Source: Orbilia blumenaviensis (lineage: Eukaryota; Ascomycota; Orbiliomycetes; Orbiliales; Orbiliaceae). Taken from it: a stretch of DNA of 64,000 nucleotides. The translations under genes and the position numbers were made by a program. The stretch spans positions 620,001 to 684,000 of the forward strand of contig JAVHNS010000019.1 of assembly GCA_036872755.1 (NCBI GenBank), given 5' to 3'. Positions 24,804-57,494 of the stretch are shown one piece after another. Positions within the stretch are counted from its first letter, which is position 1. Each line of letters opens with the position of its first letter. The notes under the pieces are model-generated. The model was not told the DNA's origin and did not search any database. It saw only the letters and a program-made list of their open reading frames with translations.

Positions 24804-25527
24804 ATGTCGGACATCATAAACGCCAACCCCACCATCCTCAATCCCTCCGACCTTCCAACCCGCCAATCAGAATCTCGCAAAAAGCAATCCTCATCAGCCC
24901 ACATCGCAGACAAAATCTCTCGTCTTCCAACATCCAAAGCTCTACTATACGATCCATTCTCTGCTTCTCTGGGTGAAGACTCAGCATATGGATCCGGCGC
25001 ATCTGATCAAGATGATGACGATGAAGATGAATCTGCGCCAGAGGATATCGATGAGCAGGAAATTTATGGTAATAAGAGCCGATATCTACTTAATTCGGTA
25101 TAATACGAATACAGAACATTCATCACTAACAACATCTCTCTATCTTACAGACTTAATCTCCACAATCTCCGACCCAGAACACCCCCTCTCCCTAGGTGAA
25201 CTTGCCGTCATAAACCTCCCTCACATCCATGTAACCCACGCTCCTGCAACGCCCGAGAACCCGTACCCAATGTCCCACGTCCTCGTAGAAATCACTCCTA
25301 CAATAAACCACTGCTCTTTGGCAACAGTTATCGGTCTCGGTGTGAGAGTAAGACTGGAACAGGCGTTGCCTCCCAGGTTTAGGATCGATGTGAGAATCAG
25401 AGAAGGGACACATCAAAGCACGGACCAGGTTAACAAGCAATTGAATGATAAGGAAAGGGTTGCAGCGGCCTGTGAGAATGAGACTTTGATGGGAGTGTTA
25501 AGTAATATGTTGGCGACCTGTAAATAG
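24804..25527 (+). CDS. CIA2: Cytosolic Fe-S targeting factor Cia2 (MIP18/FAM96 family)
   Basis: Two exons (24804-25068, 25151-25527) give 213 aa. Cia2 works with Cia1 and Met18/MMS19 in the CIA targeting complex, which delivers 4Fe-4S clusters to nuclear and cytosolic enzymes such as DNA polymerases and helicases. The MIP18 (DUF59) fold starts at about residue 86 with EIYDLISTISDPEHPLSLGEL. It continues with ITPTINHCSLATVIGLGVRVRL, where the reactive Cys of the conserved HCSxAT motif is present, and ends with the RIDVRIREGTHQS block and a C-terminal helix of conserved type (KERVAAACENETLMGVL). The acidic, Ser-rich N-terminal 85 residues are the variable part seen in fungal Cia2 proteins. It ends 395 bp from the convergent SNU114 gene. 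Confidence 0.95.
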
Positions 25528-25922
25528 GTAAACTATGGTGATTACGGCGCTAGGGAGCTAACAATCGGGTATTTGGAGGGTTGAGGGGGGACAGTCTGGG
25601 TTTGTATTGCTATTTAGCGGATTAGAATGTGAGGTAGTAATGTATAGTACACTATTATACCCGGAAGGGTGATATTTTCAATATATCAGCCAATCTATAA
25701 CAGCTTTGGGATTTACACATTCGCATTCCTTTGGTAACCGTTTGTATAAGTAGCAGTGGCTAGTATATCATTAAATGCTCCCCTCATCATATAAAATAAA
25801 TCATATATCGTACAGTCTATAGTCACCGTTACTAGCTCTCATAGAAGCTGGTGTTTGGTGTCGGCGCGCAGGAGCTACTCAGCTAGGCTCTCAGCCAAGT
25901 AGTCAGGGGAAGAAAAAAAAAA
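25528..25922. other. Short region between convergent CIA2 and SNU114
   Basis: AT-rich 3' flank of 395 bp shared by the two stop codons, with several TATAT words but no coding signal. It probably contains both transcript ends. Confidence 0.6.
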
Positions 25923-28900
25923 CTAGTTAAGCAGTCCCGATTCCTGTAAGCTCTTTTGCAGTTCTGGCTCCAAGAATTTCGAAATGGTCACATCCTCGCT
26001 GAGACCCTTTCTCCGCCTCGTCTTGAGTGTGAAATCTCTTGCCAATGCTTGTGCATTTGCTGGCTCTAATGGCCGTAGTTTGATCTCCTTGTCCAAAGGA
26101 TCACCTGGGACGACACTCCACTTGTCAAACACAAGAGATACGAATGCCTGACCTTGAGTATGAATCTACAAAAAGAAATAACGATTAGTGACTGTAGTTC
26201 GCCAAATTTTTTGGAGACTGGGTCAACTTACTCTTAAGTCTGTCTCGAAACCAAACGAATCGATCACAGGAATCAATCCCTTAACGAGATACAAGGCTAT
26301 ATCGAACATCAGTTTATGATCTCATCCAAAAAAAAAATACAAACGAGCGATAGGTGGACTCACGAGTTCCAGCAATTGGGCCATCAGTGAGAACATGCCC
26401 TCGCCTCTTCGCTAAAACAGTGTACAGCGGAGTAACGGAGTCGATTGGTCCAGTCATATGGCACGAATACATAGGCTCCATAAGTCGCGGTGAAGCCATC
26501 AGGAAAGAAGAGTAACACGCTCTCCTAGCAGTGGGGATAATCTGCCCACCACCACGGTAGATTGCTTCTGAAGCCAGCGAAGCATCCATAAGTTTGAACT
26601 TTGTATTCCGAATGGCTGTGGGAAACTTGTCAGTCACTATTCTAAAAAAGGTGTTTCGGAGTTTAGAGGAAGAACTTACGCTCTTCGCACAAAGGCCCCT
26701 CCCGGGTGCCCCACGAAAATCCCTGCTTTATCGAATCCCTTACAGAGTTCAACAGCTTTTTATCTACCTCTGACGGCAGAGTGTCATCCTGTAGGATGTT
26801 TGGGCTCATCTCCTCCGGTCCAAATGCCCAGATACTTCTGCTAGCAAGTACATCCCAACCATGTACTTCTTCGAAGAACTTTCCAACTTTTCTGATCGGC
26901 CACTTGATGCTAACTTTTCCGGTCTCAATGTCCTTAGCGACATCCTCTTCGAGCGGCTCTGCAACCATTGTAATCTTGTTTTTCTTGTTGGGCGTCATGG
27001 CATAACATTTCAGCGCCGACATTTCCACCACAGTTTCACAGAACCTAGTGACAGGATCCGAGACCTTGAGTTCCATCTCGGAATATAATCTTCGCAAATC
27101 GTGGAGAACACAGTCCATATATAACTCTCCTGTTCCCAGGATAATATGCTCGCCCGACTCCTCCACTTTTGTAACAACAAGCGGGTAGGACTTGTTGATC
27201 CTTCGAAGACCATCCAACATCTTTGGAAGCTCTGACGGGTTTACTGGCTCAACCGCCACCTTGAATACAGATTCTGTGAAATGTTTGATCGGTTTGAAGA
27301 TATAAGCGTCGTCTTCCATTTTCGGTGGGACCAATGTTGCGGTTTTGACGATTGAGTTGTCGATTCCACCGAGCAGACACCAGCATCCAGCCGGAATACC
27401 AGATGTGGGAACCTGATACCTTGTCTCAGCGACCCAGACATCAGATATAGTTGCTATTGTCATATCTTCCTCGTCATCGATCGTATAGCCCTCTCCCAAA
27501 ACCCGAACCTGGTCGCCGGGCTTAATAGTTCCAGACATAACCCTTCCGAATGCATTAAACCCCGTAGCATCAGTCGTATTATACAACTTTGTGATATGCA
27601 CAACCAATGGTCCGTTCTGGTCGCAAGTAAGCATTGCATTCGCAACATCACTGTCCAATGGTCCTGTATACGCCGATTCGATCTTTGCTTTGGCTCCATC
27701 AACCGGCGATGGGACATGCTCCACGATCATATCCACAAACCCAGTTGCCGTTCCAAAGAACTGCTCGCAAACAGCCTTGAGCAAGTCCCCTGCATCCATT
27801 TTGTACTGCGCCGGCTTTAGTGTGATTCCCAATCCAGCCAGTGTCGCCTTCAAGTTTGCTGCACTCTCACCAATTGTATGCGCATAAAGCTTATACAACG
27901 GCTCCAGCACAAAGTGCACAAACGTCCTCTTAGCCCCTTTCTCTGCGGACTTTTGCCTGGTGAACTTCCTGCTCTCGGCTCCAAAGTAGATATCTCCCCA
28001 CATCCTCCTTGCGAAGCCATCGATATCGACGCCCGAGTAGGTATCCGCATACATCTTCGCAAACGACCTGAGCGAAAAGCACCATCCCATCTTTGTTGAT
28101 GCAAAGCACACGTTACCCTTCTCAGGCGACAATCTTAGGTCGTCTCTCCCTGGAGCCGCCTCTGCAATGATGGTATTAACCTGCTCCACCGCGTGCTTAA
28201 CCTTGAAATATGCATCTGTCGGCGGGATCTTTAACTCCAGCATCAACCGATCCATCTTGTTCACCACCAGAACCAGTGGCAGGCCTTCGTTTACGGCATA
28301 CCGCACAATCTGCTCGGTATTGATCATCAGACCCTCCACCACATCAACCACAAGTACCACACCATCCGCCAACCTCAAAGACGCCGCAACCTCGTCCACA
28401 AAGTTCACATGTCCCGGAGTATCAATAATATTGACCAGATGTGATTTCCCAGCCGAACTCTGTAACACCAACGACATAGGCGCTGACTTGATCGATACCG
28501 CCCGTTCGCGTTCCAGCGTATGCACGTCCGTATACCTTAACTGCACCTCCTCCCTCCTCCCAACCGCCTTCTTCTGATCAACAATATGCGTCTCCAAAAC
28601 CAGCATATCCATAAAGGCCGTCTTCCCATGATGCAAATGCCCCGCCAACGCCACATTCCTAACCTGTTCCGGAAAACTCATCATATCCATCATAAACTCG
28701 CGTGAGAAATGCGTAACCGGTAATTCCGCTTCTTCAACAATGAATTTCTTGACTTTTATAGGCGCGATTATGGGTTCTGTTAGGGGTTGGGCGTCTTCTT
28801 CTTGGACCATTGCTTCGACGTCTGCACCGTAGACTTGTTCGGCGGTTGGGTAGTATTGTTTGTCTTCATGGAGGATCACGGCGTTGGAAGGACCCGAGTC

Positions 28901-29227
28901 GACTTCCATCAGTTGCATGTCGTTCGACGGGGAGTGTGGGGCTGGTTCGTCGTCTGAGGCGGCGTCGAAGTCGACGTAGGCGTCCGCGCCGGTGTCTTCT
29001 TGTGCTGAGCCATCGTCTGAGGAACCGGCGTCGCCGATGTAGTTTCCGAATCTGTGTGATAATAAAAAAATATCAGTTTAGGCCCTTCCATCTTTTTTGA
29101 TAAAAGATCAATGGGACAGTTGTGATAGTTTTGATAGTTAACAGAGCTTAAAGTTGCTCTGGTAGTAATACGGTATCAAGCTTTGGGGTGAAGGTTTAAC
29201 CACTTACTCGTCGTAAAGGTCATCCAT
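25923..29227 (-). CDS. SNU114: U5 snRNP GTPase Snu114 (EFTUD2/U5-116K)
   Basis: Five exons (29227-29208, 29051-26680, 26615-26364, 26296-26232, 26165-25923) give 983 aa, close to the human 972. Snu114 is the EF-2-like GTPase of the U5 snRNP. It acts with Prp8 and Brr2 in spliceosome activation and disassembly. The acidic N-terminal region (residues 1-115) is characteristic. The G domain follows: G1 GHLHHGKT at about 144-151, the switch region ending [12 protein letters not shown]3 DTPGHVNF and G4 NKMDR. EF-2-like domains II-V then run to the end, including [35 protein letters not shown] and [16 protein letters not shown]. The C terminus ([15 protein letters not shown]) matches the family. The first coding exon is only 20 nt (MDDLYD plus two bases). 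Confidence 0.97.
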
Positions 29228-29761
29228 TGTGAATTAATGAGCGGCAAGAGCAGCAATCTGAGATAAAGAAGTAAAGAGGCCGTGCTTTGGGGGGGTTATC
29301 GGAGATATGACGGCCGATTGCTGCTCCGGGTCTTGGGATAGTGGTGAGGATGGAGCTGGATGAGTCGCGCGAACTCTGTTGGCCTGAATTTTTGGTGTTC
29401 ATGTCCAACGCCACACATCGAAGTTGCTTCGCGTTGCGGCGGTGGCTTCGTCATTTTAGCTCAAGTCCAAGCTTCAAATATAATATGGACAATGTAGACA
29501 ATAGTAATTCAAAGATTCTATAGCTTCAAGCAGAAAAAGTACAGACTATAATACATAATAATAAGTACAGGGCACCCAGTAAACACTTTAGTTACCCATA
29601 TATAGCTCATAACCTCATAATACTATTCACAATCCGTTTCTTCTCATACCAACTTTTTTTTTGCCCTTTAATAAAAAGTCCATATAGTACGTGTACATTG
29701 CAATTCCCTCCTCTATAAAAAAGAATTTTTGGATTTCAATTGAAATCAAGCAAGGCTGGGA
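29228..29761. promoter_or_regulatory. SNU114 promoter and 3' flank of the zinc transporter
   Basis: Both flanking genes are on the minus strand. The half next to 29228 should be the SNU114 promoter and leader; the other half is the 3' end of the ZIP gene and is AT-rich. No separate feature is visible. Confidence 0.5.
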
Positions 29762-31688
29762 TCACGCAAATGCTCCAATGAATGCCATACCAAATGCACC
29801 CGCAAACACGCATAAAGAAGCATGTATCCTTTTCTTCCCCTTTAATATCTTCCAGCTTTCGTCTGTTAAGAAGTCTTCGGCGAGAAGCTCGACAAGCCCA
29901 CTACGGAAAAACCAGTATTAGTTCAAGAATGTCGTAAAGATATAAAGGCCAAACATGGGCGTCTTACGCAAATAGAAGAAGGCCGGAACTGATAGCATTC
30001 ATGATTCCGACCATCAATAGCCCAACCTCGCTGGCCGGGTCATAGAGTGTGTGCGTCGCGAGACCAATAGCCTGCCCAATTGGAGTTGTGGTTCCACTGA
30101 ACGTCCTCATTAGCGTCATATTATTTAGCTTCCAGCATCCTGGTGTCTACTTACTACGCCAACGCCATTAGCCACGGTTTCATAGATCCCTCCGGGAATA
30201 TCGTAATAGCCGATATCCTGGCACCCAATGCCAAACCTTCAAACGTTTCTGCGAATAATAGTCAGCATAGAGCTTTAGGAATCCGTTATTCCAGCAGCAA
30301 AAGGACTTACGGTGGAACGAAATAGCAATAAGCAGAACTATAAAGTTTGAACCCGTAGCCACACTCAACGCCATTCCAATGAAGACGCTATGGAACAAGA
30401 TACCCGCCTCTAATAGCATTACCTGTAGTAAATTCTTCTTCTGCTGAGCGATTTCCGCCGGAGACATCTGGTCGATACTTGGAAGATTGCTGTGATGTTT
30501 TTTGGGTTTGTGTTTCGCTGCACCATTCGATGAATCTCCTTCGTCGTCTGAATCAGAAAGAATGGTTTCAAGAGCAATCCCATCATCCTGCCTAGTAACC
30601 CCCAGATGTCAGCATATACCTCCCGCTTAAAAAAAAAAAACCATGAATTGACCATACTCTGACGAAATTCTATTCAATTGCATACTAATGCTCCCACTCC
30701 TGGTCCTTTTGTGTACCGACTTTCCAAGCAGACTACTAGCTGCCTCTCCATTTGTCTGATACTCTGGATCTTCATTTGGATGGAGGTCCGGCCGTAGAGC
30801 TGGCGATGAAGGCGCAACCATTTGCTCAAAATCTCCATGACTATGTGTCGGTGCACCAAATCCACTGAATACCATCTCAATTGTAACGACGAAGAACACC
30901 GCAGCAAGGGCGATAGCACCGGCCATAGCTGGATATGTTTCGGTCCAGAATTTCGGAAGACATGGATCTGTCAGGGACATGAAAGCAGTTGGGAGAAGCT
31001 GAAAAGAACTATAGTTAGCAATCATGCCAGGTCAATGTTACTCCAGAGCGTCCCCTCCTTACATGCACAAAAGCCGTCGCTAGCAGCACCCCGGTTCCGA
31101 AATGTCTTGCTAGGAACCTTCAAGCTCCAGTTAGCAAACCCTTACTCAATAATTAACCCCCCTTCCTCCATGGATGCATCCACCTACAGGAAATGATGAG
31201 GTACCCTCAGCTGCGGCACTCGTCGGACCAGAATCGGAAAACCACAAGCTGCACAGCCAAGATCGTCAGCAAACTGCAAATGCCCCTCCCGTATAATCCA
31301 CCAAGTTGTAGTGTTCCAAAAGCTCCCATACCCAGTGTGCTCAAAGCCAGCACTATTATCAACGCGAGAACATGTAGAGGCGTATCATAGGACCCTTTGG
31401 TCTTGGTGCCGCATGTCGACTGACGTCCGAGGTGTATCGGGTGGTGTGCTTCCCCTGTGTACCACAAACAATTAACCAAGCTGTCCAAGATCTGATATAA
31501 ATCCCATTATCATTATCGAAGTACCTTCAGCGAACGCCCTTATGACTAAAAATAATACAGATTAACCATCAGCTTCGAAAATTTCTTCCATCCCTTGCTT
31601 CATATGCATGAGAGAAACCAAGGTGCGCGCAGTGTGAAGAGGGAAAAAAATTACCATTGCCAGCATGAGTAGCGACGACGTCCGTCAT
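29762..31688 (-). CDS. ZIP-family zinc transporter (Zrt-like)
   Basis: Ten exons (31688-31655, 31545-31525, 31454-31332, 31248-31188, 31117-31063, 30998-30658, 30591-30311, 30248-30155, 30096-29968, 29900-29762) join to 425 aa with consistent phases. ZIP proteins bring Zn2+ into the cytosol across eight helices. Visible parts are the Cys-Gly N-terminal loop (STCGTK), helix 1 (LHVLALIIVLALSTLACG), VRRVPQLRVPHHFL, the FGTGVLLATAFVHLLP helix, a His-containing cytosolic loop (PTHSHGD) with Ser/Asp-rich spacer, and both metal-site helices: H279-SVFIG and H305-QTFEG. This is the Zrt1/Zrt2 plasma-membrane group, but high or low affinity cannot be decided. Exon 2 is 21 nt. The first two exons are chosen because they give the only in-frame ATG, so the extreme N terminus is the least certain part. 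Confidence 0.92.
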
Positions 31689-39148: not shown

Positions 39149-40380
39149 ATGTCTATGAACACAGAACAGGAGAAGCCTCTCCTCCCTCTCTACTCGGATA
39201 TCCCGGAGCAGAAACCGGTCCCTCTGCCGCCACAGCAGCGAGAGGATTCGTTGGCGACCAAATATGCATGGCTGGCTGTCTATTTCGGGCTCAATCTGGC
39301 CCTTACTCTCTATAATAAATCAGTGATGGGCTCGAAGGTGCGTAGGATTCATCCGAATGTTTCAACCATATTTTTATGCTAGTCAGAATCCATTGCAATG
39401 CTAACATTAGCGAACGATATAGCCCGATCGTCCGGCAATATTCCCATTCCCTTATCTCCTTACAGGTTTGCACGCCCTGTGCGGTTCGATAGGATGCATG
39501 TTCTTTTATGCTCGTGGCGCTTTCACATTTACAAGGTTATCAGAGTATGAAAACATCATTATGTTGCTGTTCTCTGGCCTATACACAATCAACATTGCTA
39601 TTTCCAATGTATCACTGTAAGTGCATTTCCCAAAGATTTTTTTTTTCCAGCAGGAATAACTGAAGCTGATTGTGTTTGTATAGGAATTTGGTCACTGTTC
39701 CCTTCCACCAGGTCGTCCGTGCTATGACCCCTTTCTTCACCGTCATTATCTTTGTTGTCTGCTTCCGAAAGACCTACGGATACATGACCTACATCTCCCT
39801 GATTCCCGTCGTTGCCGGTGTTGGTTTCGCCACAGCAGGTGATTACTACTTCACACCTCTCGGTTTCTTCTTGACTCTCCTAGGCGCTTTCCTCGCTGCC
39901 CTCAAGACCGTCGTCACCAACAAGGTCCAAACCGGAAGACTCCGACTGACTGCTTTCGAACTCCTGGCCCGCATGTCGCCACTCGCCTTCCTTCAGACTC
40001 TCCTCTACTCCTACTATACTGGAGAAATGGCCAAGGCTCGCGTTTGGTTCTTCACTTCTTACGACAATCAGAAAGCTATGATTTTGCTATTGAACGGTGC
40101 CATCGCTTTTGCTTTGAATGTTATCAGCTTCACTGCCAACAAGAAGACCGGTGCATTGACAATGACTGTTGCCGCCAACGTCAAGCAGATTCTGACAATC
40201 GTCATCTCGTTCGCTTTCTACGACCTCAGAGTGACCTGGCTCAACTCGCTTGGAATCATTCTCACATTGATCGGTGGAGCCTGGTACGCTAAGGTGGAAC
40301 TGGAAGCCAAGCAGAGGAACAACCCACAGCAGAAAGAGGGTCCTCCTTCGTTGCAGCACGTCGTTGTCACAAAGTCGTGA
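39149..40380 (+). CDS. Triose-phosphate-translocator-type transporter (DMT superfamily)
   Basis: Three exons (39149-39337, 39423-39616, 39684-40380) give 359 aa. About ten hydrophobic helices follow a 35-residue polar N terminus, starting with WLAVYFGLNLALTLYNKSVM. The order of motifs fits the TPT family of nucleotide-sugar and phosphate-ester transporters: NIAISNVSLNLVTVPFHQVVRA, then the PF-x-T helix, KTVVTNKVQTG, and a late SFTANKKTGALTMTVAANVKQ. Fungal members usually sit in the Golgi or ER membrane. The substrate cannot be told from sequence. The C-terminal tail is polar and carries no clear KKXX retrieval signal. Codon choice (C/T-ending, e.g. CTC, ATC, GTC) and the long CT-rich leader suggest high expression. 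The second exon start was placed at CCCGATCGTCCG because it keeps phase with exon 1. Confidence 0.9.
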
Positions 40381-43334: not shown

Positions 43335-43366
<32 letters not shown>

Positions 43367-45202: not shown

Positions 45203-48001
45203 CTACTTCCTCAACCTCTCCGACCTCCTAACCCCTCCCTTCCCACCCCTCTTCCTCTTCTCAACCTGCACCTCCTTCTCCACCCCCGCCACAACCACTA
45301 CCTCACTTTCCAACGTCTCCCCCCTCCTCCTAGCTCTCTCCTCATCAAGCACCCCAAAAACCCCTTCCTCCAAACACCACCTCTCAATATCCACCGCCCC
45401 TCCAAACCTCGCCCCATCAGCATCAACCTCCGCATCCAAAACCTCATGAATCCTCATAACCATCCCCCAACAGGCAAGATCGAACGCATTCTTCTTGGCT
45501 TTGGAAGGTTTCCATATCCTCAGTTTCCCATCGTTTCTTCTTCCGTCGTCAGATCTTATCAATTGTTTGATTAGGAAGTGCAGCCAGATTACGTTTGACC
45601 GCGGGCAGTAGAGGGACCAGTCCGGTTTGTTGATTCTTTCCGAACGGCGGGTACTGCTGTTGGTGCTGGTTGTGGGATGCCCGTTTGCGGCTGCTACCAG
45701 TTTTACGACTTCGTCTCGCACGCTATATCATAATATCAGCATACAAACCCTCTTGTCATATTAAAAAAATAAGGAAAGGAAAAGGGAGAAGTAAAAAAGA
45801 CTCACATCCGATAAATATCAAACTGATACAACCCCTCCGCCTCAAACATCCCTTCCTCCATCTCCATAAACGCCACTCCACCCCCAACTTCCTCAGGAAT
45901 CTTCGCCCTCGAAAGCGTATAATCAATCATAGTAACTACCACATCCTCAAACCCCGCATGCGTAACCTCCAAACTCCTCCCCACCCCTGAATCCTCCCTA
46001 ACCCCAACCTCCCTCTCCTTCTTAACATCCCTAACCAACAAATTCCCAGAATGTAAATCTCTATGCTCAAACTCTCGATCCCTTTCAGCTTGTGCGAACG
46101 CTGAGATCGTTTGTCGGAATATTTCCAGTGGGACGTCCCATGTGCTCCAGCGGGTGTCTTCGAGACTGCACCCGCCGTCTTCGAGGGCGATTATGGCGTG
46201 GTAGGGGGTGTCGACGTAGATCGGGATTGTGGGGTCGTATCTACTGTTGTTCTTTTCTTCCCAGAGTCGCCATGCTGCTTCTAGTTCGGGGGGGATGCGG
46301 GTGCAGACGACTTGGCAGCCGAGGTATTTGATAAATCCGGGGATGGGGGATAGCGCGCGGGTAGTTTTTAGCTCTTGTAGGACTTCCATCTGTGTTTTTG
46401 TAGAACTTAGTATTTAGATCCAGTAAAAGAAAATTAAACAAACGGAAAGTGAAAGGGAGAGAGAGAGGGAAGACATACAACATTCGTCTCCGTCGTCATC
46501 GGCACAAACTTCAGCACCACAGACCGTCCATCATCTCTCTTGTGAATATACACCTCCGCAAAACTCGACTCTCCGATCTTTTTGATATGTGAAAAGTCCG
46601 AGGAGATTGTTTGTAGGTATTCCGTGTAGGAGATGATCTGTGGTTTGTCGCATACGGGGAGGAGGGAGTGGATCTTGCTGTTGCGCTCGAAATTTGGTAT
46701 TTCTACAGGTGGGGTGACGAGGCCCTTTGGTTTTTTGGTTGGCTTGGGTGTTGGTGTGACGTTAGTTTGGGGCTGTTTGGTTGGTGTGGAGGGTGCTGCA
46801 ATTTTATAATAGAAGAAATGTTAGATATAAATTCTTTCGAGGCGTTTTTTTTTTTAAAAAAGGGTAATAATGAATGGGTGGTGGTGGTCTTACGAGAATG
46901 CAGAGTTAAAGAGCGCAGACCGGTGATGATCTCCGGGTCTTTAACGGCGAGAGCGGGGCCTTCTTGGATACGACCGCGACGTCTGGCTTCATTGTGGAGC
47001 TCTCCGCGCTTTTCGGGGCTGATGAAGACGGACTCGTCGTATTCCTCGATTTCTTGGACGTCGTCCTCGTCGTATTCCTCCTCTTCCTCCTCTTCCTCCT
47101 CATTATCATCGTTAGACCCGTCGGATTCGGATTGTGTGTATTCCACTGCTTCTTCTTCTTCTTCTTGTTCGCTATGTCCTTGTGGTTGGGGCTCGGCGGC
47201 CTCTGCTTCGAGGGGAGGGGTTATGCTGCGCCTGGAGGATACTATCTCAACAGCGAAGGTCTCCCTGCGCTTGACAGCTGTCTGTTCTTGCGCATAACCC
47301 TGCTGCAGCTCAACCTCGACCTCGACCTCAACTTCAGCAGAAGCAGCAGCAACCACCACTTCTTCATGCGCGAAAGTCTCAGTCTCAGCCGGCTGACAAA
47401 CCGGCTCCGGTATTCTGCTCTCCCGCCTGGCACATGAATTCCTCTGCTTGGGTTTATTCTTGGGAGTAGATGGAGGTTGTAGCTGATTGAGTTGATTGTC
47501 TGGTTTGGGGATAAGCGGCTGGCGGGTTCTGAGGTGGACGGGCATGGTCGGGGCATGCTGCTGCTTGACAGGGGAAATATCGACATCCTCATTGTCATCA
47601 ACGCCGGCGTCGTTAGATGTCAATACTTGCTTGGCTGCTGTATCATAACAATAAAACTTATGTGTCAGTACATATACTTATATAATACAGGTATGGATAT
47701 ATAGTATATAATTCTAACAATCAAAGAGGTGTATAATATGAGAGGGGACCGACTGACCTGCTCTCTCAACCAACGGCGATTGCGGCGGAGACTCCAGTAC
47801 AAAGCTATCGTCGTCATCGTCATCACTATCAGAACCACGGGTCCCGGAAGCTACAGGAACGGCGGATGGCCTCTGCAGGAGCAGTCCCTGGTGTTTCCGT
47901 TGGGAGTCCCATGCGCGGGCCGAGCCTCTGAAGGACTTTGTGAGGGTTCCGGCGCGACGGCCTGTGCCGTACTGCTTTGGCTTGTGTAGGGCCGACGGCA
48001 T
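45203..48001 (-). CDS. Haspin-type histone H3 kinase
   Basis: Five exons (48001-47758, 47637-46894, 46795-46479, 46389-45806, 45722-45203) give 802 aa. Haspin phosphorylates histone H3 Thr3 in mitosis and so helps place the chromosomal passenger complex at centromeres. Residues 1-330 are disordered: an acidic block, a 'TPPLEAEAAEPQPQ' region and a run of nine Glu. The kinase domain begins near residue 400 with the Gly-loop IGESSFAEVY. It has the beta-3 Lys425 in VVLKF, a catalytic loop HRDLHSGNLLV (Asp546) and, in place of DFG, the haspin-specific DYT at 591-593 (MIDYTLSR). GLYQFDIYR and DWSLYCPRSNVIWLHFLIKQL are family signatures. About 110 residues with a strongly basic end (KRKRGGKGG) follow the core. 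It is divergent from ERO1. Confidence 0.93.
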
Positions 48002-50038
48002 TTTTTATTTTTATTTTTTTTACTTTCTTTATTGTGTCCACTCCCTTCTTCCTTTTTCTTCTTCTTCTTCTATTCCCTGTTACTAGTGTACTATTTCCCT
48101 TTACTCGTATTATACAACAGACACAGCCCCCCTGTAGAGATCGATCGATTGGTGTAGTGTAGTCGGTTGGATGGCTGATTGTTCGGGAAGCGGAGGGTGA
48201 GTGGGTGTATATGTAGTTTTTAATCCAATATGGTTAATATAGTATAGAGTGGATTGGAGTGGAGGGTATGCGGGCATATGGGTGGTGGGTGTGCAGGCAG
48301 TTTTGTAATTGGGGTGGTTTAATAGGTATTTGATAAAAAGAAGAGGTTGAAGTCAGTGGTGGTGATGGTGATGATGGTGCCGTCGTTTGGGGAATGCTGA
48401 TTTGGATGTTTCCGGGGGCACGTCGTTCGTTCGTCCGCCCCGTCGTCGGGTTAGACAAAGAGGGATTGGGATGTTGTGGAATTGCCTGTTTGGGACGCTC
48501 TCCAAACAACGCCCTTCGTCTGCTGGGGAAACCACCAGCCACAAAAACATTACATACATACATACACTAGCCACTGTGATACAAATACACACTAGCCACA
48601 GTTACTTGCATTGGCCACATTGCCTCATCTGGACCAAAATGTGGCTGTGGTGGTACTATTTATAGGGGGAAAGGGAAACGACAGGGATCTGGTTTGCGGC
48701 GACGGCGGAACACTACGAGTGCTAGTAGCACAGGAACAGGGACAACAGGAAACAGGACAAGGCGGAACCAAACAGCGATTGATCCGATGGAGCCGCTCCC
48801 CCCGGCCTGGCCTGTTTGTCCTCTATATTCCTCTGTTCCTGCATGCATGCCCCATCTATATATACTTAAAAAGTATTTAGTTCTTTCGAGTTTAAAAAGT
48901 TCGTCCGACGTCCGACGACTTGACATGGGCGAGTTTACTGCAATCTGGCCTGTACGCTCGGTCATGGCCGGTTATGACATATGCATTCCCCCGGCTTCCC
49001 GCATCGAATTTCGAATCTGACGGTCGATCATATACCCCTACATGCCATAAGCACTTAACTTCCTTACTTTACTTAACTACTTAGTTTATAGCGGACGGAC
49101 CGAATGAAGAAGGTCTTGAGAAAAAAAAAAAAAAAGGAATGGACTGATGCAGTTAGTATGATATATCTAAAGAGTGCGATGCAGGGGTAAAAAAAATCTT
49201 AGAAGGAGGAAGAATGAAGAAGAGTACACCGTTTCACGCCGGACATCGATTTCTAATCCACTTCCAGCTTTATATACTCCTACTTCTTCTTCCCTTTCCA
49301 ATCTTGTATACTTCTGATCTATAGGGGGGAGACCTTTCTACTTCATGTATACATCTGTCTAAATAACTCTTTGTTTTTTAACCATCGTATTCTCTTTTTA
49401 TATATTTTTTTAAAGCTTTAGCCCCCGCCATAAAAAGGAAAGTAGAAGGGGGAAAAGTTAAAGACGCTATTCTCACGCCACCCCGGAATCATAATCCTAG
49501 ACATCTTCTTTTCCTGCGATCTCACCAGCGCAGCCTACCTAGCCTAGCTATCCCCCATTCTATCCAGTTATAATCTTATATGATACGATAGTACAATAGG
49601 AATAGGATGCGGATGGCCTCTTGATCGCATCACCATTCTTTGTGGAATTCAGAACAGCCTGTCATCTTTGAAACCCTTCCCTCCTTCTCTTCTAATATCA
49701 ATATCAATTGCCTCCCCTCCACTCCCACTCCCACTCCCACTCCCACTCCGCTCCACTCCACTCCACTCTTCCCCCCTCTATTCCTCTTCCTCACTCTTAC
49801 TCGACCCTCCACATGCGCCGCCCATAGACATAGCTGCTACTTCTTTTTTTTACAACACTAGCAAGGTATCGGTATCGCGCATTCTTATTTATTTTTCAAC
49901 AACCCAACAGACCTTCAAAACCAACCAACCTCAAACTTCGAATCCTCACCTATCGACAAATATACTATTAAATATATTATATAATATAATAGAAAGATAT
50001 AGAGGGCAAAGAGAGAGAGAGAGAGACAGACACACACA
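48002..50038. promoter_or_regulatory. Divergent promoter region, haspin and ERO1
   Basis: Two kb between divergent start codons with no supported gene. It contains CCCACT tandem repeats followed by CTCCA repeats (about 49719-49768), a 15-A run near 49120 and GA-rich sequence directly before the ERO1 ATG (50009-50028). I looked for a clear unfolded-protein-response element before ERO1 and cannot point to one. Confidence 0.5.
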
Positions 50039-52119
50039 ATGGCCGCCCGCCGCACCCACCGGCACGCCGCTCGCGGCTTCTTCCTCGGTTGCCTCGTCGC
50101 CACAGCCACCCACGCCGCCGTCGACAAGGACCTCAGCTACTGCTCCGTACGTCTTTATACCCCCCAATCCCCCCCACCCCCTCTCTTAGCTCTATGAAGA
50201 AGCAGCTGTAGCTAATATATCAACAGAACGAACCAAACTCACTAGTCTCCGACGCCTGCGTCTCCTACGCCACCCTCGAATCCATCAACTCCGAAATCCG
50301 CCCCGCGATCCAATACCTAACCAACCACGTCGACTTCTTCACCTACTACCGTCTAGACCTCTACGGCCGCGAATGTCCCTTCTGGTCCGACGACGCCGGT
50401 TTCTGCGCAAACCGCGCTTGCGCCGTAGAACTAACCGATGAAAACGACATCCCTGAATCCTGGCGTTCCTCTGAATTGGGAAAATTGGAAGGTCCGAAGG
50501 CATCACAACCTTCGCCGGAGGTTAGGAAGGAGGAACCCTCGCCGTTTAAAGGTGAATTGGGGGAGGATACGGCTGAGAGCTGTGTTTTTGAACCGGCGGA
50601 GGGGGATAAGCGCGACTACTGCGTTCCTGAGGATGAAGGGAATGGGAATAATTGTGTATATGTCAGCTTGTTGGATAACCCTGAGAGGTTCACGGGGTAT
50701 GCGGGACAGTCGGCGAATAATGTATGGAAAGCGGTTTACCAGGAAAACTGCTTCAACACGCAAGCTCAGGCTCAGGCTCAGAAGCAGAGCACCAACAGCC
50801 AACCATTCGGCGCATTCGGCGCTGGTATGCCAAAGGCGCCGGTAGCGGCGGATCCTAATGCCGCCGCCGATCTCAAGAACGTGATGGATAGGAGGAAGCA
50901 TGAGGTCGTTCAGAAGAACTTGATCTCTCCGCCACCGGAGGAGCAGTGTCTTGAGAAACGGGTGTTTTACAAGGTCGTCAGCGGGATGCACGCCAGCATC
51001 TCCATGCACCTGTGCTACGACTTCTTCAATCAGACTACTGGCGAGTGGGTGCGTATTCCCCCTCTTACATACCTAACCCCCCTCCTATCACCCCCATAAT
51101 AACAATAGTAATATACTAACGAATCACGATGATATTTGAATTTAAACACAGGGCCCAAACCTCCAATGCTACAAATCCCGCCTCCACAACTTCCCAGACC
51201 GCATCCAAAACATGTACTTCAACTACGCAATCCTCCTCCGCGCGATCTCAAAACTCCGCAAAAACCTCCCTCAATACACCTTCTGCGCAGGAGACAAACG
51301 CACCAACGAATTCACCCGCAAAAAACTCGCAGCTCTGACGGACAGCATAGCATCCCACCCGAGCGTATTCGACGAAAGTGTAATGTTCAGAGATGAGAAT
51401 GCAGCTGTTTTAAAAGAGGATTTTAGAACGAGGTTTAGGAATGTTAGCAGATTGATGGATTGCGTTGGGTGTGATAAGTGTAGGCTTTGGGGGAAGTTGC
51501 AGACGTCAGGGTATGGAACTGCTATGAAGATACTTTTTGAATACGATGAGAATGAGGAAGGGGGGAATAAAAACCCGGTGTTAAGACGCACGGAGTTGGT
51601 AGCGCTGGTTAACACCCTCGGCCGGCTCTCGAATTCTCTACACGCATTCACGAGATTCGGGGCAATGATCGAACGGGAACGTGTGATCGAGGAAATGCGC
51701 GCTCAAGATGCGTTCGTGCAGCTGGAGAAGGAGGCGGAAAGACAAAGGAAGGAGGCTGAGGAGAAGAAGGATGAAGACGAGGGAATATTGAGATGGCCAG
51801 AACAGCCGGAGCTGACGGGGAATGAGTCGGTGAAGGAGCTGGTGATGCGTGAGATGGAGCTGATATGGTTCGCTTTTCGGTTCATCATGAAGAGTTGGTA
51901 TGACCTGCCGCTGAAGATGTGAGTCCCCTCCCCCTTTTCCACCCACCCACCATTCGCCTATTTAAATGCATCGTATAAGGGAATGTAATGGCTAATATAT
52001 TTTGATATAGATGGCGAATCTACCGCTGGGGCAGTGCCGTCGTGATGGACAAGTTCTTGGGCCGGGACCGCTACCAAACCCGCGTGTTCCCCTACCGCCA
52101 TGCCCTCGACGAGCTATAA
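50039..52119 (+). CDS. ERO1: ER oxidoreductin Ero1
   Basis: Four exons (50039-50146, 50227-51048, 51152-51918, 52011-52119) give 601 aa. Ero1 is the FAD enzyme of the ER lumen that reoxidises protein disulfide isomerase and passes electrons to O2. A signal peptide covers about residues 1-27 (basic start, then GFFLGCLVATATHA). The shuttle-Cys region includes YGRECPFWSDDAGFCANRACAVE. FAD-contact blocks such as WKAVYQENCF and HASISMHLCYDF are present. The core redox motif is C-x2-C-x2-C (CVGCDKC) at residues 414-420, followed by the family sequence RLWGKLQTSGYGTAMKIL. Residues about 515-545 are a charged, coiled-coil-like insertion (KEAERQRKEAEEKKDEDEG). The last exon encodes WRIYRWGSAVV and a short tail without HDEL. 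Length and motif order fit fungal Ero1. Confidence 0.96.
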
Positions 52120-52915
52120 ATCAATCAATAAATAAATAAATCTAAAACAAACCCTCAAAAGTTTGGGAGATATCCTACTAGATGAATATATGTTATAAAA
52201 AAGGGGAAAGAAAAAAGAAAAAGAAAGATAGAGAAAGAGAGAAGAGAAGAGAGAGGGGTGCATAGAGGGGACACGGAGTTAAGTATTCCTGATATTATTT
52301 TATATCTTTTCTTTTTGTATTTTTATTAGTACTATAAGCAGAAACCCCGGCGTTTTTTTTGTTACTCTATCATTGTATTCATATCCATATATACTATGGC
52401 TTCCTTCCTTCCTTCCTTTTTTTATTTTGTATATATCTTTTTTTTTACCTTCGTTCTTTCTCTTTATTATTTATTATACTTCTTTCCGAAACCAGGTCAA
52501 GAAATTAGCCCATCTTATATGTTATATGTACTGTGTATAAAAAAAGGAGCAGAGTCGTGTGTCCGAGCTCAAGCTCGAGCTCAAGCTCGAGCTCAAGCCT
52601 AGCTTAACTGTCTTGAGTACTTGGGCAAGGTAGCTTAGCGCACTTCTTCCCGATCACCGACATCATCGTGCATAAAGAAAAACCCGCATCATCCCAAACC
52701 AACCACCAAAAAAAAAGTTCCAACAACCTCTTCTTCGGCTAGCTGCGCTTTACATCTAAAAAACCCACAATCCTTTAGAACCCTCAGAGCTTCGGATACC
52801 ATACCATACTCTACCGTCCTATAAAAAATCCAAAAAAAAAAGAGAGAGAGAGAGAGAAGTTAGAGTTAGAGAGTTAGAGAGAGAGAGAGAGGAGGGAGAC
52901 GAAAAGAACAAAAAG
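52120..52915. other. Intergenic region between ERO1 and JAC1
   Basis: Contains the ERO1 3' flank (AATAAA repeats right after the stop, 52123-52141), a GA-rich stretch (52200-52256) and a 12-bp palindromic tandem repeat (reported separately). GA dinucleotide runs immediately precede the JAC1 start (52841-52890). The two genes are in tandem, so the right part is the JAC1 promoter. Confidence 0.6.
52565..52598. repeat. 12-bp tandem repeat GAGCTCAAGCTC
   Basis: Almost three perfect head-to-tail copies (12 + 12 + 10 bases) of GAGCTCAAGCTC. The unit contains a SacI-like palindrome GAGCTC, and the junctions make further palindromes, so the array can fold on itself. It lies about 320 bp before the JAC1 start codon. 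Confidence 0.9.
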
Positions 52916-53629
52916 ATGACGGCACGCGCCCACCAGCTCCTAACCCTCACCGCGACAAAAGGCCGCATACCATTCCTCCTCCTCCCCCGCGCCGCCGCCG
53001 CCGCCGCCTTCCTCCCCCCCACAAACCGCCACTACTCCACCTCCTCACAATCATCACCAGAAACACCACCCCCAGGCAAAAAGAACAAACCAACATACTA
53101 CACCCTCTTCCCCCTCACCCTCCCCCTCGGCCCCCCGCCCTCAGGCCCCTTCACAATCCCCCTCCGCCCCCTCCGTTCCGAATTCCTAAAACTCCAACAA
53201 TCAACCCATCCAGACCTCTTCCCCCCCTCACAAAGAAAACTTTACGAAACCGCCTCAGCACAACTCAACAAAGCCTACACAACATTATCATCCCCCCTCC
53301 TCCGCGCCGAATACTTATTATCCATAAAGGGACACCTACCACCATCGGATGATGAAGGTGGGAAAGTTGCGGATGCAGAGTTGTTGTTAGAGGTTCTTGA
53401 TGCGAATGAGTTGCTTGAGACGGCGGTTGATGAGAAGGAGTTGGAGCCGTTGAAGAGGAGGAATGAGGAGAGGATCGAGGGGTGTGTTGGGAGGCTTGAG
53501 GAGCTTTTTAAGGATGATGCCAAGCTGGAGGAGGTTAGAGCGGAGGTTGTGAGGTTGAGGTATTGGGTTAATCTTGCGGAGGCTTTGAGGCATTGGGAGC
53601 CTGGGAAGGGGGTTAGTTTGCAGCATTAG
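52916..53629 (+). CDS. JAC1: Mitochondrial J-protein co-chaperone Jac1 (HscB type)
   Basis: Intronless, 237 aa. Jac1 brings the Fe-S scaffold Isu to the Hsp70 chaperone Ssq1/Ssc1 and stimulates ATP hydrolysis for cluster transfer in the mitochondrial matrix. Residues 1-45 are rich in Arg, Ala, Leu and Ser with almost no acidic residues, as in a presequence. The J domain starts near residue 59 (TYYTLFPL) and has its invariant HPD at 98-100 (QQSTHPDLF), then SAQLNKAYTTLSSPLLRAEYLLS. The C-terminal HscB helical domain carries ELLLEVLDANELLE, which corresponds to the Isu-binding surface. Codon use flips sharply near 53340, from C/A-ending to G/T-ending codons. Confidence 0.94.
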   Translation: MTARAHQLLTLTATKGRIPFLLLPRAAAAAAFLPPTNRHYSTSSQSSPETPPPGKKNKPTYYTLFPLTLPLGPPPSGPFTIPLRPLRSEFLKLQQSTHPDLFPPSQRKLYETASAQLNKAYTTLSSPLLRAEYLLSIKGHLPPSDDEGGKVADAELLLEVLDANELLETAVDEKELEPLKRRNEERIEGCVGRLEELFKDDAKLEEVRAEVVRLRYWVNLAEALRHWEPGKGVSLQH

Positions 53630-54001
53630 CCTCTTCCTCCCCTCTTTAACTACCACTTAAACTGGGTTTTTTTCTTATATGTTTAGATGGGGGAGTTAGA
53701 TGGTATGGTATAATTATTAATGACGGCGGGGAGAAAGAGGTGGGATATTGTTTCATAAGTGTATATAAGTATATAGTATATAGTCAAAAAAAGTAGATAT
53801 CGTAGCTGTATGATATGATATGTATGGAAGGGGGGTATGATATTTATTCTTCACCACCACCATCACCATACATGGCATAGGACCCAATTAACTTATTTAT
53901 AGCTATCATAAAAATCCCTACTTCATCCAGCCCTTCCATCATAATACAAATCCAAAATACTTAAAAGAATATAGAGTAATATATATATATAGTAGTATAA
54001 A
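53630..54001. other. Short region between convergent JAC1 and the PX gene
   Basis: AT-rich 372 bp between two stop codons, with TATATA and GTATAT words. It presumably holds both 3' ends. No gene seen. Confidence 0.6.
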
Positions 54002-57000
54002 CTACTCCGCCAGCACGTTCTTCAGCGCCACCAAAAACACGTCTCCCATCTTATGCAGCTCGTCGATCGGTGGCTTCACCGGCTGTCCCGCAGTCCGTCT
54101 CAAGATCTCTGCCTGCCGATTCCTCCTCTTCTGCTCAACCGCGATTAAATCCGCATCGTCTCCTTCCTCTTCAAACGCCAGATCCTCATCCATCTCCGCG
54201 TCATCAATTGCTAGGTCCGCCAGGTCCTCCTGTAGCACACATCAACAATAATTAGCCCCATAAACATAACTATGATAGAACAATAAAAAAGGGAAGAAGG
54301 AGAATAACATACCGGCTCCAGCCCAAAATCCGTCACACTAAACCCCCCAGGCGTAGCCTCCGCCCAATTCTCCCTTCCACTCGCCATCTTCTGCCTCGTC
54401 TTCCCCTCATGCCACCTCTTCCTATCAAACTGCCATTTGATCAAACTATCAATCTCCGCCTTCGCTTTAACGGGATCAATAATCTTTTGCTCAACCGCAT
54501 CCTCAAACAGTTTGTTCATATCTAACGCTCCCCGTTTGGGTCCGTTACGCAGGAATGATAGAATATCTTCGATCCAGCCCATCAGCGACGAGAAGAGACC
54601 GTTGTCGTGTAGATGGACTTCGTGGATGAATTTGAAAAAGTTGTCTTCGTGGCGGGCGCAGAGGTCTATGAACGCCTGTACTGTCTTGTTTGGATCCGAT
54701 GCTAAGTCTGGTTCTGTTAGTTAGGACCATAAAACACACACACACACCTACAAAATAAGAATATAAAGAGGGGAAGAGGGGCGGAGGACTACCTTGCTTC
54801 TGCGCCTTCTCCACAACAACAATAATATCATCCAAGAAATGCGCAAAGTCCGTAATACTGTTATACACATTCGCAGACTTATAAACCCTCACTAGCGGCT
54901 CATAGAAGATATGGAACAGATCCCTAAACAGCTGCAGCGTAACCGGCTCTTCGATCAACGCCTGCATCATCATCTTGTCCCTTCGCCGGGTATACAGCTT
55001 CAACAGCTGTTTCAAATGCGAAAATAGTACCGCACCCTGTCGCATCTCGTCATCGACGTTGTTGACAGCGTTGGTCCAGGCGACGTAGGCGTTGAACACC
55101 GTTCCGATCTGCTCGGGCGTGAGATCGGGTTCCAATAGATCAGACCGCAGTATAGAGACCAAGATATCGACATCGTCAGCTGCGGCATCCTCTCGGATGA
55201 TATCCCGAACATCGTCGCTGGCTTCAGCGAATTGCTTAATCTTGTCGCATAGCACAGCGTCCCCAACCTTAGGCCACAACGAATCAATCGCCTTCTGCAC
55301 CTGATTCACACCGTCCGAAATCGCCATACCAAACACCCGCTGCATGAGCGAACGAGACTTAAACGGCTGCGCAAGGAACAGATCCAACACTCCGGACATA
55401 ACAGCCGCCGGGTTTGCAATGCGAATAATATTCTTAAGCACAGCGTACGGTATCAGGGAGTGTATCCTCTTCATCTGCGCGAATAACTCCGGAGAGTTAT
55501 CCTCCGCGAGGAAGAGGTGGTAGATTGTAGCGGCGACTTCTATCCTGGCCCATTCTGCGAACTTTTGGTAGTTGGGTGAGAGCTCCGAGATGTGGTTCTT
55601 TTCCTTGATTTCGGCGAATAAGTTCGTCAAGCCGTCTACTTTATATTAGTAAATTGTTCCGCATCTTTTGGGTATACGCCCACTTACTAGCTTCAACGAT
55701 CTCCCGCCTAAACCCTTCCATGTAAGCGTCAAGCTCCCTAGCTCTCGCTCTCGCGATCTCAAAGAACTTCATCTGCTCATCAACCCTCGCCTGATCCGCC
55801 AACCTTCTCCGCTTCTCATCCGCCTCCTCCTCTCTATTCAGCTTCACCGGCGAATCCGTCAAGAAATTCTTGATAGCCGTGGACGTCGCAATCTGCTGAT
55901 TCTTCAGCAGATTCCTAATGTACGCACGCAACGAAACTCGTTGATCTTCCCTCCATAGCGGCGAGCTCTCCTGCGGCGGCGAATCTCCTCTTTCCGAATT
56001 CAGGCTGTTCCGATTCCTCGACACAGACCTCGAATTTCTAGTTGAGGATGCGGAGCGGGAATGCGAGAACGGCGCCGACAATCTACGGGAGGAGACTTCG
56101 ACCGACGCAGTAGTTGATACGGATGAGATTGAACTGGAGTCGTCATCTTTGATCGCGCCGCTTGGGGTTAGGAGACCGGTGGAGCCGCCGGACGAGGCTT
56201 TGGTTTTGATGGGTAGCGGTGGGAATGTCTTTCCGGGGAATTCCTTCTTCAACTACATGTCCCCAAGTCATATTAGCTAGCTTCTTCGCGGGTTTAAATA
56301 TAGTCTTGTAAAATGTTGAACTTACGTCTCTTGTCAGCTGCTTGAAGGCGCCATACCGCCTGCCCACCAGCGTCTCTCCATGCTTCTCATGCTTGCTGCG
56401 TATCAGGAATTCCTACCACCCCACATCACATTACAATTAGCCCACCCTTTCTTTATAATTCCATAAGATTCCCACCAAAAACCACTCACAGCATGCGTAT
56501 GATACCGCACAGTCCTCTTCACCGACGTCTGTCGCACGCTAACAACATTGACGTCCCACCCATTAAGCACATGTCCCTCGGGCACATTAACCATCAAAGA
56601 CTCATCCCTAGCATCCCTATCCACCACTTCTATCTCCTCGAACCCCACGCGCTCTTCGTAACCTGAAGCGGTGGGGATACCGGAGTTCATCATCAATTCT
56701 ACCAGTTTTTCGCATTTTAGGGCTAGTTTTCGACGCTTTGTTTCTTCGAGGCGGTCTTCGGAGGAGGATATTTGTTTGGTGGCGAAGGATTCTAGGAACT
56801 ATATTTTTTTATTTTTATCAATGATTAATTAGCATTTTTTTTTTAGCAATAAAACTATATTTTTTTTTTTAAAAAAATTTTATTTTTGGAAATTTCCGGT
56901 TTGCTGTAGTTGTCCGGCACATAGTGAAAGAAGAGAGAGAGAGAGAGAGAGAGAGATGTGATATGACGTACCACCTGCAGCTTATCCTGCCAAAACTCCT

Positions 57001-57494
57001 TCTCCTTCGCCTGATCCAGGAACGGGAACTTGCGCACATGATGAACGAAGATAAACCGGAGGATGGGTAGGTCTGAATCGGTGGGCGATACCTCGCCGAG
57101 GTCAGATTTGAAGGGAGCACCGAAACGACGGAGGGCGGTTGGGGAGTTGAGTTCTGCGATTTCGGATTTGGTTTGGCGGGAGATGAGTTCGCGTTTGAGG
57201 TCTTTTGGTGGGGGGGGGGGGGAAGAGGCGGGGGAAGGTTGATTATGTTAGCTTTGGGATTCAACAAAAATAATAACAATAAAAATATATAGAATTATCT
57301 AGAGATAGAAGATAATTATAGGAGAAGATGAAGAGGAGGAAGCAGGAAAGGCTATAATTACAGTGCTCTTGCTTCCCGGTGAGGATGTTCCCGGTATTAT
57401 CGCCGCCGCCCTTATTATAGCGTTTGCTGTTTGCTCCCATCATCTTTGTTTCTGGAGGAGTGCCATAGGGCGGAGTGACTGAGCCGTCAGACAT
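54002..57494 (-). CDS. PX-domain protein of the Ypr097w/Lec1 type
   Basis: Eight exons (57494-57362, 57201-56972, 56798-56490, 56412-56326, 56252-55688, 55635-54793, 54713-54313, 54229-54002) give 931 aa. The N-terminal PX-associated helical domain (residues about 40-140) begins QEHYLKRELISRQTKSEI. A PX domain follows, with strands around VSVRQTSVKRTVRYHTHAEF, then RSKHEKHGETLVGRRYGAFKQLTR and the FPGKTFPPLPIK loop. This binds phosphoinositides in endosomal or vacuolar membranes. After a Ser-rich linker come LRAYIRNLLKNQQIA and the long alpha-helical DUF3818 region, then an acidic C terminus. This order is that of yeast Ypr097w (Lec1), linked to lipid distribution; the exact role is open. The start is the only ATG upstream of the first domain. 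The acceptor of exon 2 follows a poly-C tract. Confidence 0.88.

What the first reader, a model, noticed from the sequence alone, without database searches (positions are those of the whole stretch)
24804..57494. Coding exons run from A/C-ending to G/T-ending synonymous codons and reset at each exon
In most genes here, on both strands, the 5' part of an exon uses A/C-rich synonyms (CTC/CTA Leu, CGC Arg, TCC/TCA Ser) and the 3' part uses G/T-rich ones (TTG Leu, AGG Arg, AGT Ser). Clear cases: both CIA2 exons; ERG10 exons 5 and 6; haspin exons 4 and 5; PX-gene exons 5, 6 and 7; JAC1, with a flip near 53340. Because the trend follows transcription direction on both strands and restarts after introns, it is not a regional base-composition drift. 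The F-box gene does not show it. Possible causes are exon-edge splicing signals, co-transcriptional mutation bias or mRNA structure.
Basis: seen in the sequence. Interest (0 to 1): 0.75.

Follow-up and report, generated by a model that had tools for sequence, protein, structure and literature searches.

The report
Exons that flip synonymous codon letters
In patches of this nematode-trapping fungus's chromosomes, many exons use codons ending in A or C in their first part and then switch abruptly to codons ending in G or T, apparently because a strand-specific DNA process rewrote those genes; what makes such exon-sized switches is not known.

Summary
The window is from the nematode-trapping fungus Orbilia blumenaviensis. 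In my gene models 21 of 44 window exons go from A/C-ending (M) to G/T-ending (K) synonyms at p<0.05; 3 lean the other way at p>0.95. Three corrections. (1) It is mostly a step, not a gradient: JAC1 goes from 0.95 to 0.06 M. (2) It is patchy: blocks cover 49% of codons in patterned stretches of three contigs and 3% elsewhere. (3) M-then-K is its own reverse complement, so both strands must agree; transcription direction cannot be inferred. The reset at introns is real, yet long intronless genes also cycle. The two arms do not pair better than shuffles. Amino-acid replacements private to this species follow the blocks, those of relatives do not, which favours a DNA-level pressure over codon selection. 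GC4 peaks at exon edges. Best reading: a strand-asymmetric repair footprint like that beside meiotic breaks (PMC7615360), with breaks in introns and spacers. The sharp mid-exon flip stays unexplained. Nine literature searches found no description.

The parts
52916..53344 (+). JAC1 (HscB-like, intronless): A/C-ending (M) block
   Evidence: fourfold M fraction 0.95, LLR 49.5; flip at 53345; Pfam HSCB_C
53345..53629 (+). JAC1: G/T-ending (K) block
   Evidence: fourfold M fraction 0.06
10752..11267 (-). ERG10 (thiolase) exon 6: M 0.84 then K 0.23, flip about 10948
   Evidence: LLR 18.6; p=0.001; flip
11344..11688 (-). ERG10 exon 5: M 0.84 then K 0.33
   Evidence: LLR 7.6; p=0.001
14641..15212 (-). 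exon 4 of the gene at 13815-16487: 0.60 then 0.12
   Evidence: LLR 8.6; p=0.001
24804..25068 (+). CIA2 exon 1, M then mixed
   Evidence: p=0.009; LLR only 2.6
25151..25527 (+). CIA2 exon 2, M then K
   Evidence: p=0.001; LLR 5.4
26680..29051 (-). RIA1-like exon 2: M start (first 286 bp) only, then 0.40
   Evidence: LLR 12.2; half test p=0.59
45203..45722 (-). haspin exon 5: 0.59 then 0.09, flip about 45499
   Evidence: LLR 11.3; p=0.001; flip
45806..46389 (-). haspin exon 4: M 0.84 then K 0.09, flip about 46086
   Evidence: LLR 25.9; p=0.001; flip
46479..46795 (-). haspin exon 3: M 0.89 then K 0.07, flip about 46570
   Evidence: LLR 17.5; p=0.001; flip
50227..51048 (+). ERO1 exon 2: M to about 50455, K to about 50700, then mixed
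   Evidence: LLR 16.2; flip; track
51152..51918 (+). ERO1 exon 3: M to about 51371, then mostly K
   Evidence: LLR 19.6; flip
54313..54713 (-). PX gene exon 7: 0.65 then 0.09
   Evidence: LLR 9.2; p=0.001; Pfam PX, PXB, DUF3818
55688..56252 (-). PX gene exon 5: 0.72 then 0.09
   Evidence: LLR 21.6; p=0.001
56490..56798 (-). PX gene exon 3: 0.86 then 0.20
   Evidence: LLR 11.6; p=0.001

Best explanation
In patches of this genome a strand-asymmetric DNA substitution process has rewritten genes. It acts on modules a few hundred bp long that are bounded by gene ends and, where present, introns. In the second part of a module the top strand has become rich in G, and slightly in T, at the expense of A and C; in the first part the bottom strand has, so that the top strand reads C/A-rich. 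Shown here: the blocks, the step, the intron reset, the patchiness, the higher GC4 at exon edges, and amino-acid replacements in the same direction on this species' branch. Inferred: the agent is error-prone repair of single-stranded 3' tails at recurrent breaks in introns and spacers of recombination-hot patches. Damage and translesion synthesis on the exposed strand (A>G, C>G, C>T) would leave K to the left and M to the right of each break. The sharp mid-module flip does not follow from this.
For: 20 of 20 exons with LLR>=9 go M to K among 211 testable; 29 of 30 with LLR>=7 in the larger set. Short-range M/K autocorrelation is 0.21 in patterned stretches and 0.02 elsewhere, and neighbouring genes jump from 0.00 to 0.19 near C15:207 kb and from 0.00 to 0.18 between C18:191 and 199 kb. 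M is 0.38 before and 0.67 after introns (46 introns). K blocks against other exons at fourfold sites: G 0.47 against 0.20, T 0.33 against 0.28, A 0.12 against 0.25, C 0.08 against 0.27; M blocks roughly the complement. GC4 within 120 bp of an exon edge minus interior: +0.105 (se 0.023) in 19 strong exons, +0.007 (se 0.011) in 118 exons outside the patches. Replacements private to this species shift toward M-coded residues in M blocks (+0.29, n=40) and K-coded ones in K blocks (-0.15, n=39), one-sided permutation p=0.012; on relatives' branches the sign is opposite. [quoted passage not shown] that this means K left and M right is my reading).
Against: The mid-exon flip is mostly a step (median logistic scale 15 bp); two opposing sources should give a blurred, partly neutral middle. 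In ERO1 exon 2 K follows M directly at about 228 bp and fades before the 3' edge. Cycles occur inside a 4.1-kb intronless gene. Flanks of genes carry roughly 40-60% of the codon effect and far intergenic DNA almost none, odd for a purely mutational process. The K-block half of the replacement test is weak alone (8 up, 11 down, 20 zero). The edge effect on GC4 is not clear in the other patch exons (+0.027, se 0.035, n=20). No break map, recombination map or relatives' DNA was available; the spectrum is inferred from composition. Patches were defined after seeing the pattern.
Confidence: 0.38

Rival explanations
1. Selection against local base pairing. If short-range pairing in mRNA or single-stranded DNA is harmful, synonymous sites settle into domains made only of A/C or only of G/T, with sharp walls, because letters of one class hardly pair with each other. 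Weak biases at exon edges fix the sign.
For: Explains sharp walls of both kinds. The blocks weaken local folding from -21.9 (whole-exon shuffles) to -18.5 kcal/mol per 99 nt, z +3.0. Exons outside the patches share a weak slope of the same sign (-0.22).
Against: No avoidance beyond the blocks themselves (z 0.07; -0.26 for whole modules). Selection on mRNA should not switch on and off between neighbouring genes. Replacements follow the blocks too.
Confidence: 0.17
2. Strand-asymmetric biased gene conversion: heteroduplex DNA forms between diverged haplotypes inside exons, which lack insertions and deletions, and stops at introns and spacers, which have them; mismatch repair then favours one letter class on each strand. 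Recombination drives fixation, not mutation.
For: Exons as units follow naturally; the effect is patchy and comes with raised GC4, 0.60 and 0.55 against 0.47, highest near exon edges in the strong exons.
Against: No known repair bias favours letters by strand in this way (from general knowledge, not searched); a fixed sharp flip and cycles inside long exons need fixed initiation points.
Confidence: 0.15
3. The patches were acquired from another lineage in which this codon pattern is genome-wide, so their edges are introgression breakpoints.
For: Sharp on/off between neighbouring genes.
Against: Non-coding GC is nearly the same inside and outside patches (0.427 and 0.423); the proteins are about as close to relatives as expected for a sister lineage (ERO1 0.89 and 0.88, haspin about 0.70). 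It only moves the question to the donor.
Confidence: 0.07
4. Divergent transcription from introns, promoters and terminators, with a transcription-linked mutation bias that makes the non-template strand A/C-rich over a few hundred bp in both directions.
For: Would put K-to-M changes at introns and gene ends.
Against: Needs the opposite of the usual transcription-linked bias (recalled) and hundreds of short transcripts; not tested here.
Confidence: 0.08
5. Exonic splicing signals near both exon ends.
For: The restart at introns; exon-end biases are known in intron-rich species (abstract and passages of PMC2374712).
Against: Strongest in intronless JAC1, several cycles in intronless genes, blocks of hundreds of bp, absent next door.
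Confidence: 0.02

Closest known systems
Strand-asymmetric mutation flanking human meiotic break hotspots (PMC7615360, passages seen)
   Same: Sign of the asymmetry on the two sides of the source, gain of G, higher GC towards the presumed source.
   Different: There rare variants over about 2 kb per side with a symmetric central 100 bp. Here nearly saturated codon choice in blocks of about 200-450 bp with sharp flips, bounded by introns and gene ends; breaks not shown.
Replication skew N-domains of mammals (PMC3320577, passages seen)
   Same: A/C to G/T is an abrupt upward skew jump, strand-symmetric, as at replication initiation zones.
   Different: Megabase scale with linear decline between jumps, also in intergenic DNA. 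Here the scale is a few hundred bp, inside genes.
Exon-end composition bias from splicing enhancers (PMC2374712, abstract and passages seen)
   Same: Composition depends on position in the exon and affects amino acids.
   Different: There graded near exon-intron boundaries and absent in the intron-poor ascomycetes tested. Here blocks fill exons, occur in intronless genes, and depend on chromosomal patch.
Transcription-associated strand skew (recalled)
   Same: Strand-asymmetric composition in genes.
   Different: One sign along the transcribed strand. Here two signs within one exon.

Membership tests
meiotic-break mutational footprint | skew changes sign across the source (K left, M right) | tested here: met
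   46 introns in patches: M 0.38 before, 0.67 after; gene flanks have the same signs
meiotic-break mutational footprint | gain of G at the expense of A and C on the exposed strand | tested here: inconclusive
   composition of K blocks fits; no polarised nucleotide changes available
meiotic-break mutational footprint | effect fades with distance from the source | tested here: not met
   M and K stay high up to a sharp flip; GC4 does fade from exon edges
meiotic-break mutational footprint | breaks and recombination at the source sites | not testable with these tools
   no break or recombination map
replication skew N-domain | linear decline between jumps over about a megabase, genic and intergenic | tested here: not met
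   blocks of about 200-450 bp; far intergenic windows sd 0.193 against 0.177
exonic splicing-enhancer bias | tied to the presence of introns and to the exon ends | tested here: not met
   intronless JAC1 LLR 49.5; cycles in intronless C18 genes; flip 195-320 bp from the exon start in 15 of 19 strong exons
selected RNA hairpin | arms pair better than their composition predicts | tested here: not met
   mean z -0.26 over 19 exons against shuffles within blocks
transcription-associated skew | one sign along the transcribed strand | tested here: not met
   both signs within single exons

The most novel reading that the evidence does not exclude
A regionally switched process treats DNA in exon-sized modules and drives the two parts of each module to opposite strand composition, with a sharp wall, until synonymous sites are nearly saturated and amino acids begin to follow. 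I know of no mutation, repair, conversion or selection process that does this; walls of both kinds suggest a self-reinforcing or centre-initiated mechanism.
Probability: 0.35. Interest if true: 0.9.

Novelty: new variant of a known kind. Interest (0 to 1): 0.76.

Why it matters
If break repair writes it, base composition alone would map past recombination breaks at fine scale in a fungus without a recombination map, and introns would be shown to bound repair tracts. If not, a strand-specific process strong enough to override codon usage and alter proteins is still undescribed. Either way codon-usage, dN/dS and tree inference are biased in such patches, and unpatterned genes next door give an internal control.

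Tried and rejected
RNA hairpins between the two arms: no support. Avoidance of local structure beyond the blocks: none. Splicing signals as sole cause: rejected by intronless cases. Whole-gene gradient: exon position wins. Genome-wide codon rule: outside the patches the half difference is only 0.093 against a null of 0.013, sd 0.020 (141 exons, 93 positive; intronless genes 0.077 against 0.011, sd 0.042, 19 exons), a weak tendency of the same sign. Foreign origin by composition: no sign in non-coding GC. A simple sum of two fading sources: does not give the sharp flip. My first gene-finder version made micro-exons and was discarded.

Literature: nine searches, of which one search was aimed at break mutagenesis and at nucleosomes, found no description. 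The library is open-access only and lacks preprints.

Dropped before counts: exons with under 16 fourfold sites (change-points), under 8 fourfold sites per half (70 half tests), under 100 bp or under 5 sites per half, exons cut by a stretch end in most tests (not change-points). The 19 strong exons are those with LLR>=9 and a drop above 0.4. The split into patterned and other stretches was drawn after seeing the data. 26 stretches were fetched without knowledge of their content; two of them (C18:200 kb, C15:200 kb) lie in or overlap a patch; L022, L023 and L030 were fetched because a neighbour was patterned. For the replacement test I used 9 ERO1 proteins of 120 listed, 10 haspin proteins of 13 listed, 8 PX proteins of 120 listed.
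Full report
What was checked. The window is G000:C19:620001-684000 of a 42.46-Mb, 23-contig genome. The ERO1 and haspin proteins of the window match Orbilia blumenaviensis entries at 100% over full length, so the host is this member of the Orbiliomycetes. I wrote a gene finder, trained it on the window plus 20 stretches of 10 kb, and obtained 76 genes and 224 exons. Later stretches brought the set to 27 loci, 354 kb, 107 genes and 292 exons. Gene names: Pfam supports thiolase, ZIP, haspin, PX and ERO1; JAC1 rests on HSCB_C, with no J domain reported; CIA2 is just under the cut-off of its domain; the gene called F-box gives only an LRR domain at threshold. RIA1 is the name by resemblance.

Is it there? 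At fourfold sites, window exons of at least 300 bp have a first-half minus second-half M-K difference of 0.58 (24 exons, 21 positive); with synonymous codons permuted within exon and amino acid it is 0.075 (sd 0.037). In the loci outside the window it is 0.13 (85 exons, 58 positive) against 0.003 (sd 0.020). Exon by exon, 21 of 44 window exons reach p<0.05, 14 reach p<0.002, and 3 exceed 0.95.

What shape? Mostly a step. Over 19 strong exons the fitted logistic scale has a median of 15 bp; the upper bound is below 45 bp in 10 of 19, and one exon (C18 gene 4 exon 2) is more gradual, 45-90 bp. M blocks have fourfold A 0.29, C 0.52, G 0.08, T 0.11; K blocks A 0.12, C 0.08, G 0.47, T 0.33; other exons 0.25, 0.27, 0.20, 0.28. 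Two-fold sites follow: C/(C+T) is 0.65, 0.25 and 0.51, and A/(A+G) 0.60, 0.23 and 0.50, in M blocks, K blocks and unpatterned stretches. Strong change-points go M to K: 20 of 20 at LLR>=9, 24 of 25 at LLR>=7, 33 of 38 at LLR>=5 among 211 testable exons, and 29 of 30 at LLR>=7 in the larger set, the exception being in L026. An HMM finds that of 48 exons in patterned stretches 28 begin in M, 1 in K and 19 neutral; 27 end in K, none in M and 21 neutral; returns from K to M exist (4 direct, others through neutral). Tracks of C18 show several M/K cycles inside intronless genes of 1.0 and 4.1 kb.

A logical point. A/C followed by G/T on one strand is A/C followed by G/T on the other. Genes on both strands must show the same order if the pattern depends only on position between boundaries, and in patterned stretches they do: + strand mean 0.50 (13 exons, 12 positive), - strand 0.56 (35 exons, 28 positive). 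Transcription direction cannot be read from this.

Where is it? Change-points with LLR>=7 occur in 16 of 44 testable exons of the window, 5 of 8 at C18:190-220 kb and 6 of 14 at C15:200-220 kb, but in 3 of 163 in the other 24 loci (the sum is mine). Gene by gene, short-range M/K autocorrelation is 0.00 for the first two genes of C15 and then 0.08-0.21; 0.00 for the first gene of C18 and then 0.11-0.35; in the window 0.00 and 0.02 for the first two genes, then 0.04-0.59, except ZIP (0.02) and its neighbour (0.01). The separation is not perfect: 20 of 23 genes in patterned stretches and 8 of 80 elsewhere are at 0.08 or more (my count from rounded values; this measure also rises when a whole gene leans to one class). 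Pooled at 3-15 bp, M/K autocorrelation in patches is 0.21 (null 0.04), R/Y 0.13 (0.04), S/W 0.09 (0.03). HMM blocks cover 4903 of 10101 codons in patterned stretches against 1040 of 31171 elsewhere. Patterned genes include conserved ones: thiolase, haspin, ERO1, PX, and by recalled resemblance TatD and ALG14 on C15.

Exons or genes? In patterned stretches the M fraction is 0.38 in the last 120 bp before an intron and 0.67 in the first 120 bp after; the mean step is +0.272 (se 0.043) and 37 of 46 are positive; at pseudo-introns inside exons it is -0.113 (324 places). Regression gives exon position -1.75 (-2.55..-1.16) and gene position -0.24 (-0.72..0.13) in 18 multi-exon genes. Outside the patches exon position is -0.22 (-0.35..-0.10), weak but not zero.

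Codon choice or DNA? Flanks share the sign more weakly. In the first 200 bp upstream of ATG M-K is +0.05 to +0.19 in the window and +0.16 to +0.31 at C18, downstream of stop -0.04 to -0.18 and -0.20 to -0.36, but upstream of genes elsewhere it is also +0.04 to +0.13. Far intergenic windows hardly differ from other loci (sd 0.193 against 0.177), windows within 300 bp of genes do (0.255 against 0.198). First and second codon positions follow the third: r=0.36 in 350 windows against 0.14 in 1172. With orthologues of haspin, ERO1 and PX, replacements private to O. blumenaviensis move toward M-coded residues in M blocks (+0.29, n=40) and K-coded ones in K blocks (-0.15, n=39; one-sided permutation p=0.012); with outgroup polarity +0.35 (19) and -0.40 (10), p=0.012. 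Replacements private to relatives go the other way (-0.14, n=33; +0.25, n=57), as regression to the mean would give. So the pressure seems to act on DNA, to change proteins, and to belong at least partly to this lineage. The sample is three genes, and the K side alone is weak (8 up, 11 down, 20 zero).

RNA structure. Modules fold no better than shuffles within blocks (z -0.26) or across the exon (z -0.19). Blocks do weaken local folding (z +3.0 against whole-exon shuffles) with no further avoidance inside blocks (z 0.07).

A hint at the source. In the 19 strong exons GC4 is 0.63-0.66 within 120 bp of an exon edge, 0.48-0.56 farther in, and 0.52 within 60 bp of the flip. Edge minus interior is +0.105 (se 0.023; 16 of 19 positive), against +0.027 (se 0.035, 20 exons) in the rest of the patches and +0.007 (se 0.011, 118 exons) elsewhere. 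This points to exon edges, that is introns and spacers, as the source, and to recombination. [quoted passage not shown] Sign and gain of G match. The sharp flip, the K that follows M directly in ERO1 exon 2, the cycles in long exons and the weak flanks do not follow from it. I hold this explanation at 0.38 and leave room for conversion bias, selection against local pairing, and an unknown bistable process.

Novelty. Nine literature searches found nothing describing it, within an open-access library. The nearest things in print differ in scale, sharpness and dependence on exons.

Noticed in passing
L007 (C6:200001-210000): A 10-kb stretch with only 24.9% GC, unlike the other loci (43-48%); perhaps an AT-rich repeat or decayed block.
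   Followed up: no
window 46894-47637: Haspin exon 2 runs against the rule (half test p=1.000) between strongly patterned exons; it encodes acidic low-complexity sequence.
   Followed up: partly
window 29762-30926 and 39498-40380: Two genes inside the window (ZIP transporter and a transporter-like gene) show no M/K pattern (0.02 and 0.01), so the patch is interrupted.
   Followed up: partly
exons outside the patches: A weak slope of the same sign exists (exon-position logit slope -0.22, -0.35..-0.10).
   Followed up: partly
patches, non-coding DNA: CpG and GpC odds are lower than elsewhere (0.85 against 0.95; 1.01 against 1.09).
   Followed up: no
window 45203-52119: Haspin and ERO1 also have consecutive locus tags in Dactylellina haptotyla (H072_5118, H072_5117) and Drechslerella stenobrocha (DRE_06031, DRE_06030), so this gene order is old.
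   Followed up: no
L007:2309-3184 and L021:4108-4983: Predicted 876-bp intronless genes with the same length, number of fourfold sites and low M fraction on two contigs; probably copies of one repeat.
   Followed up: no
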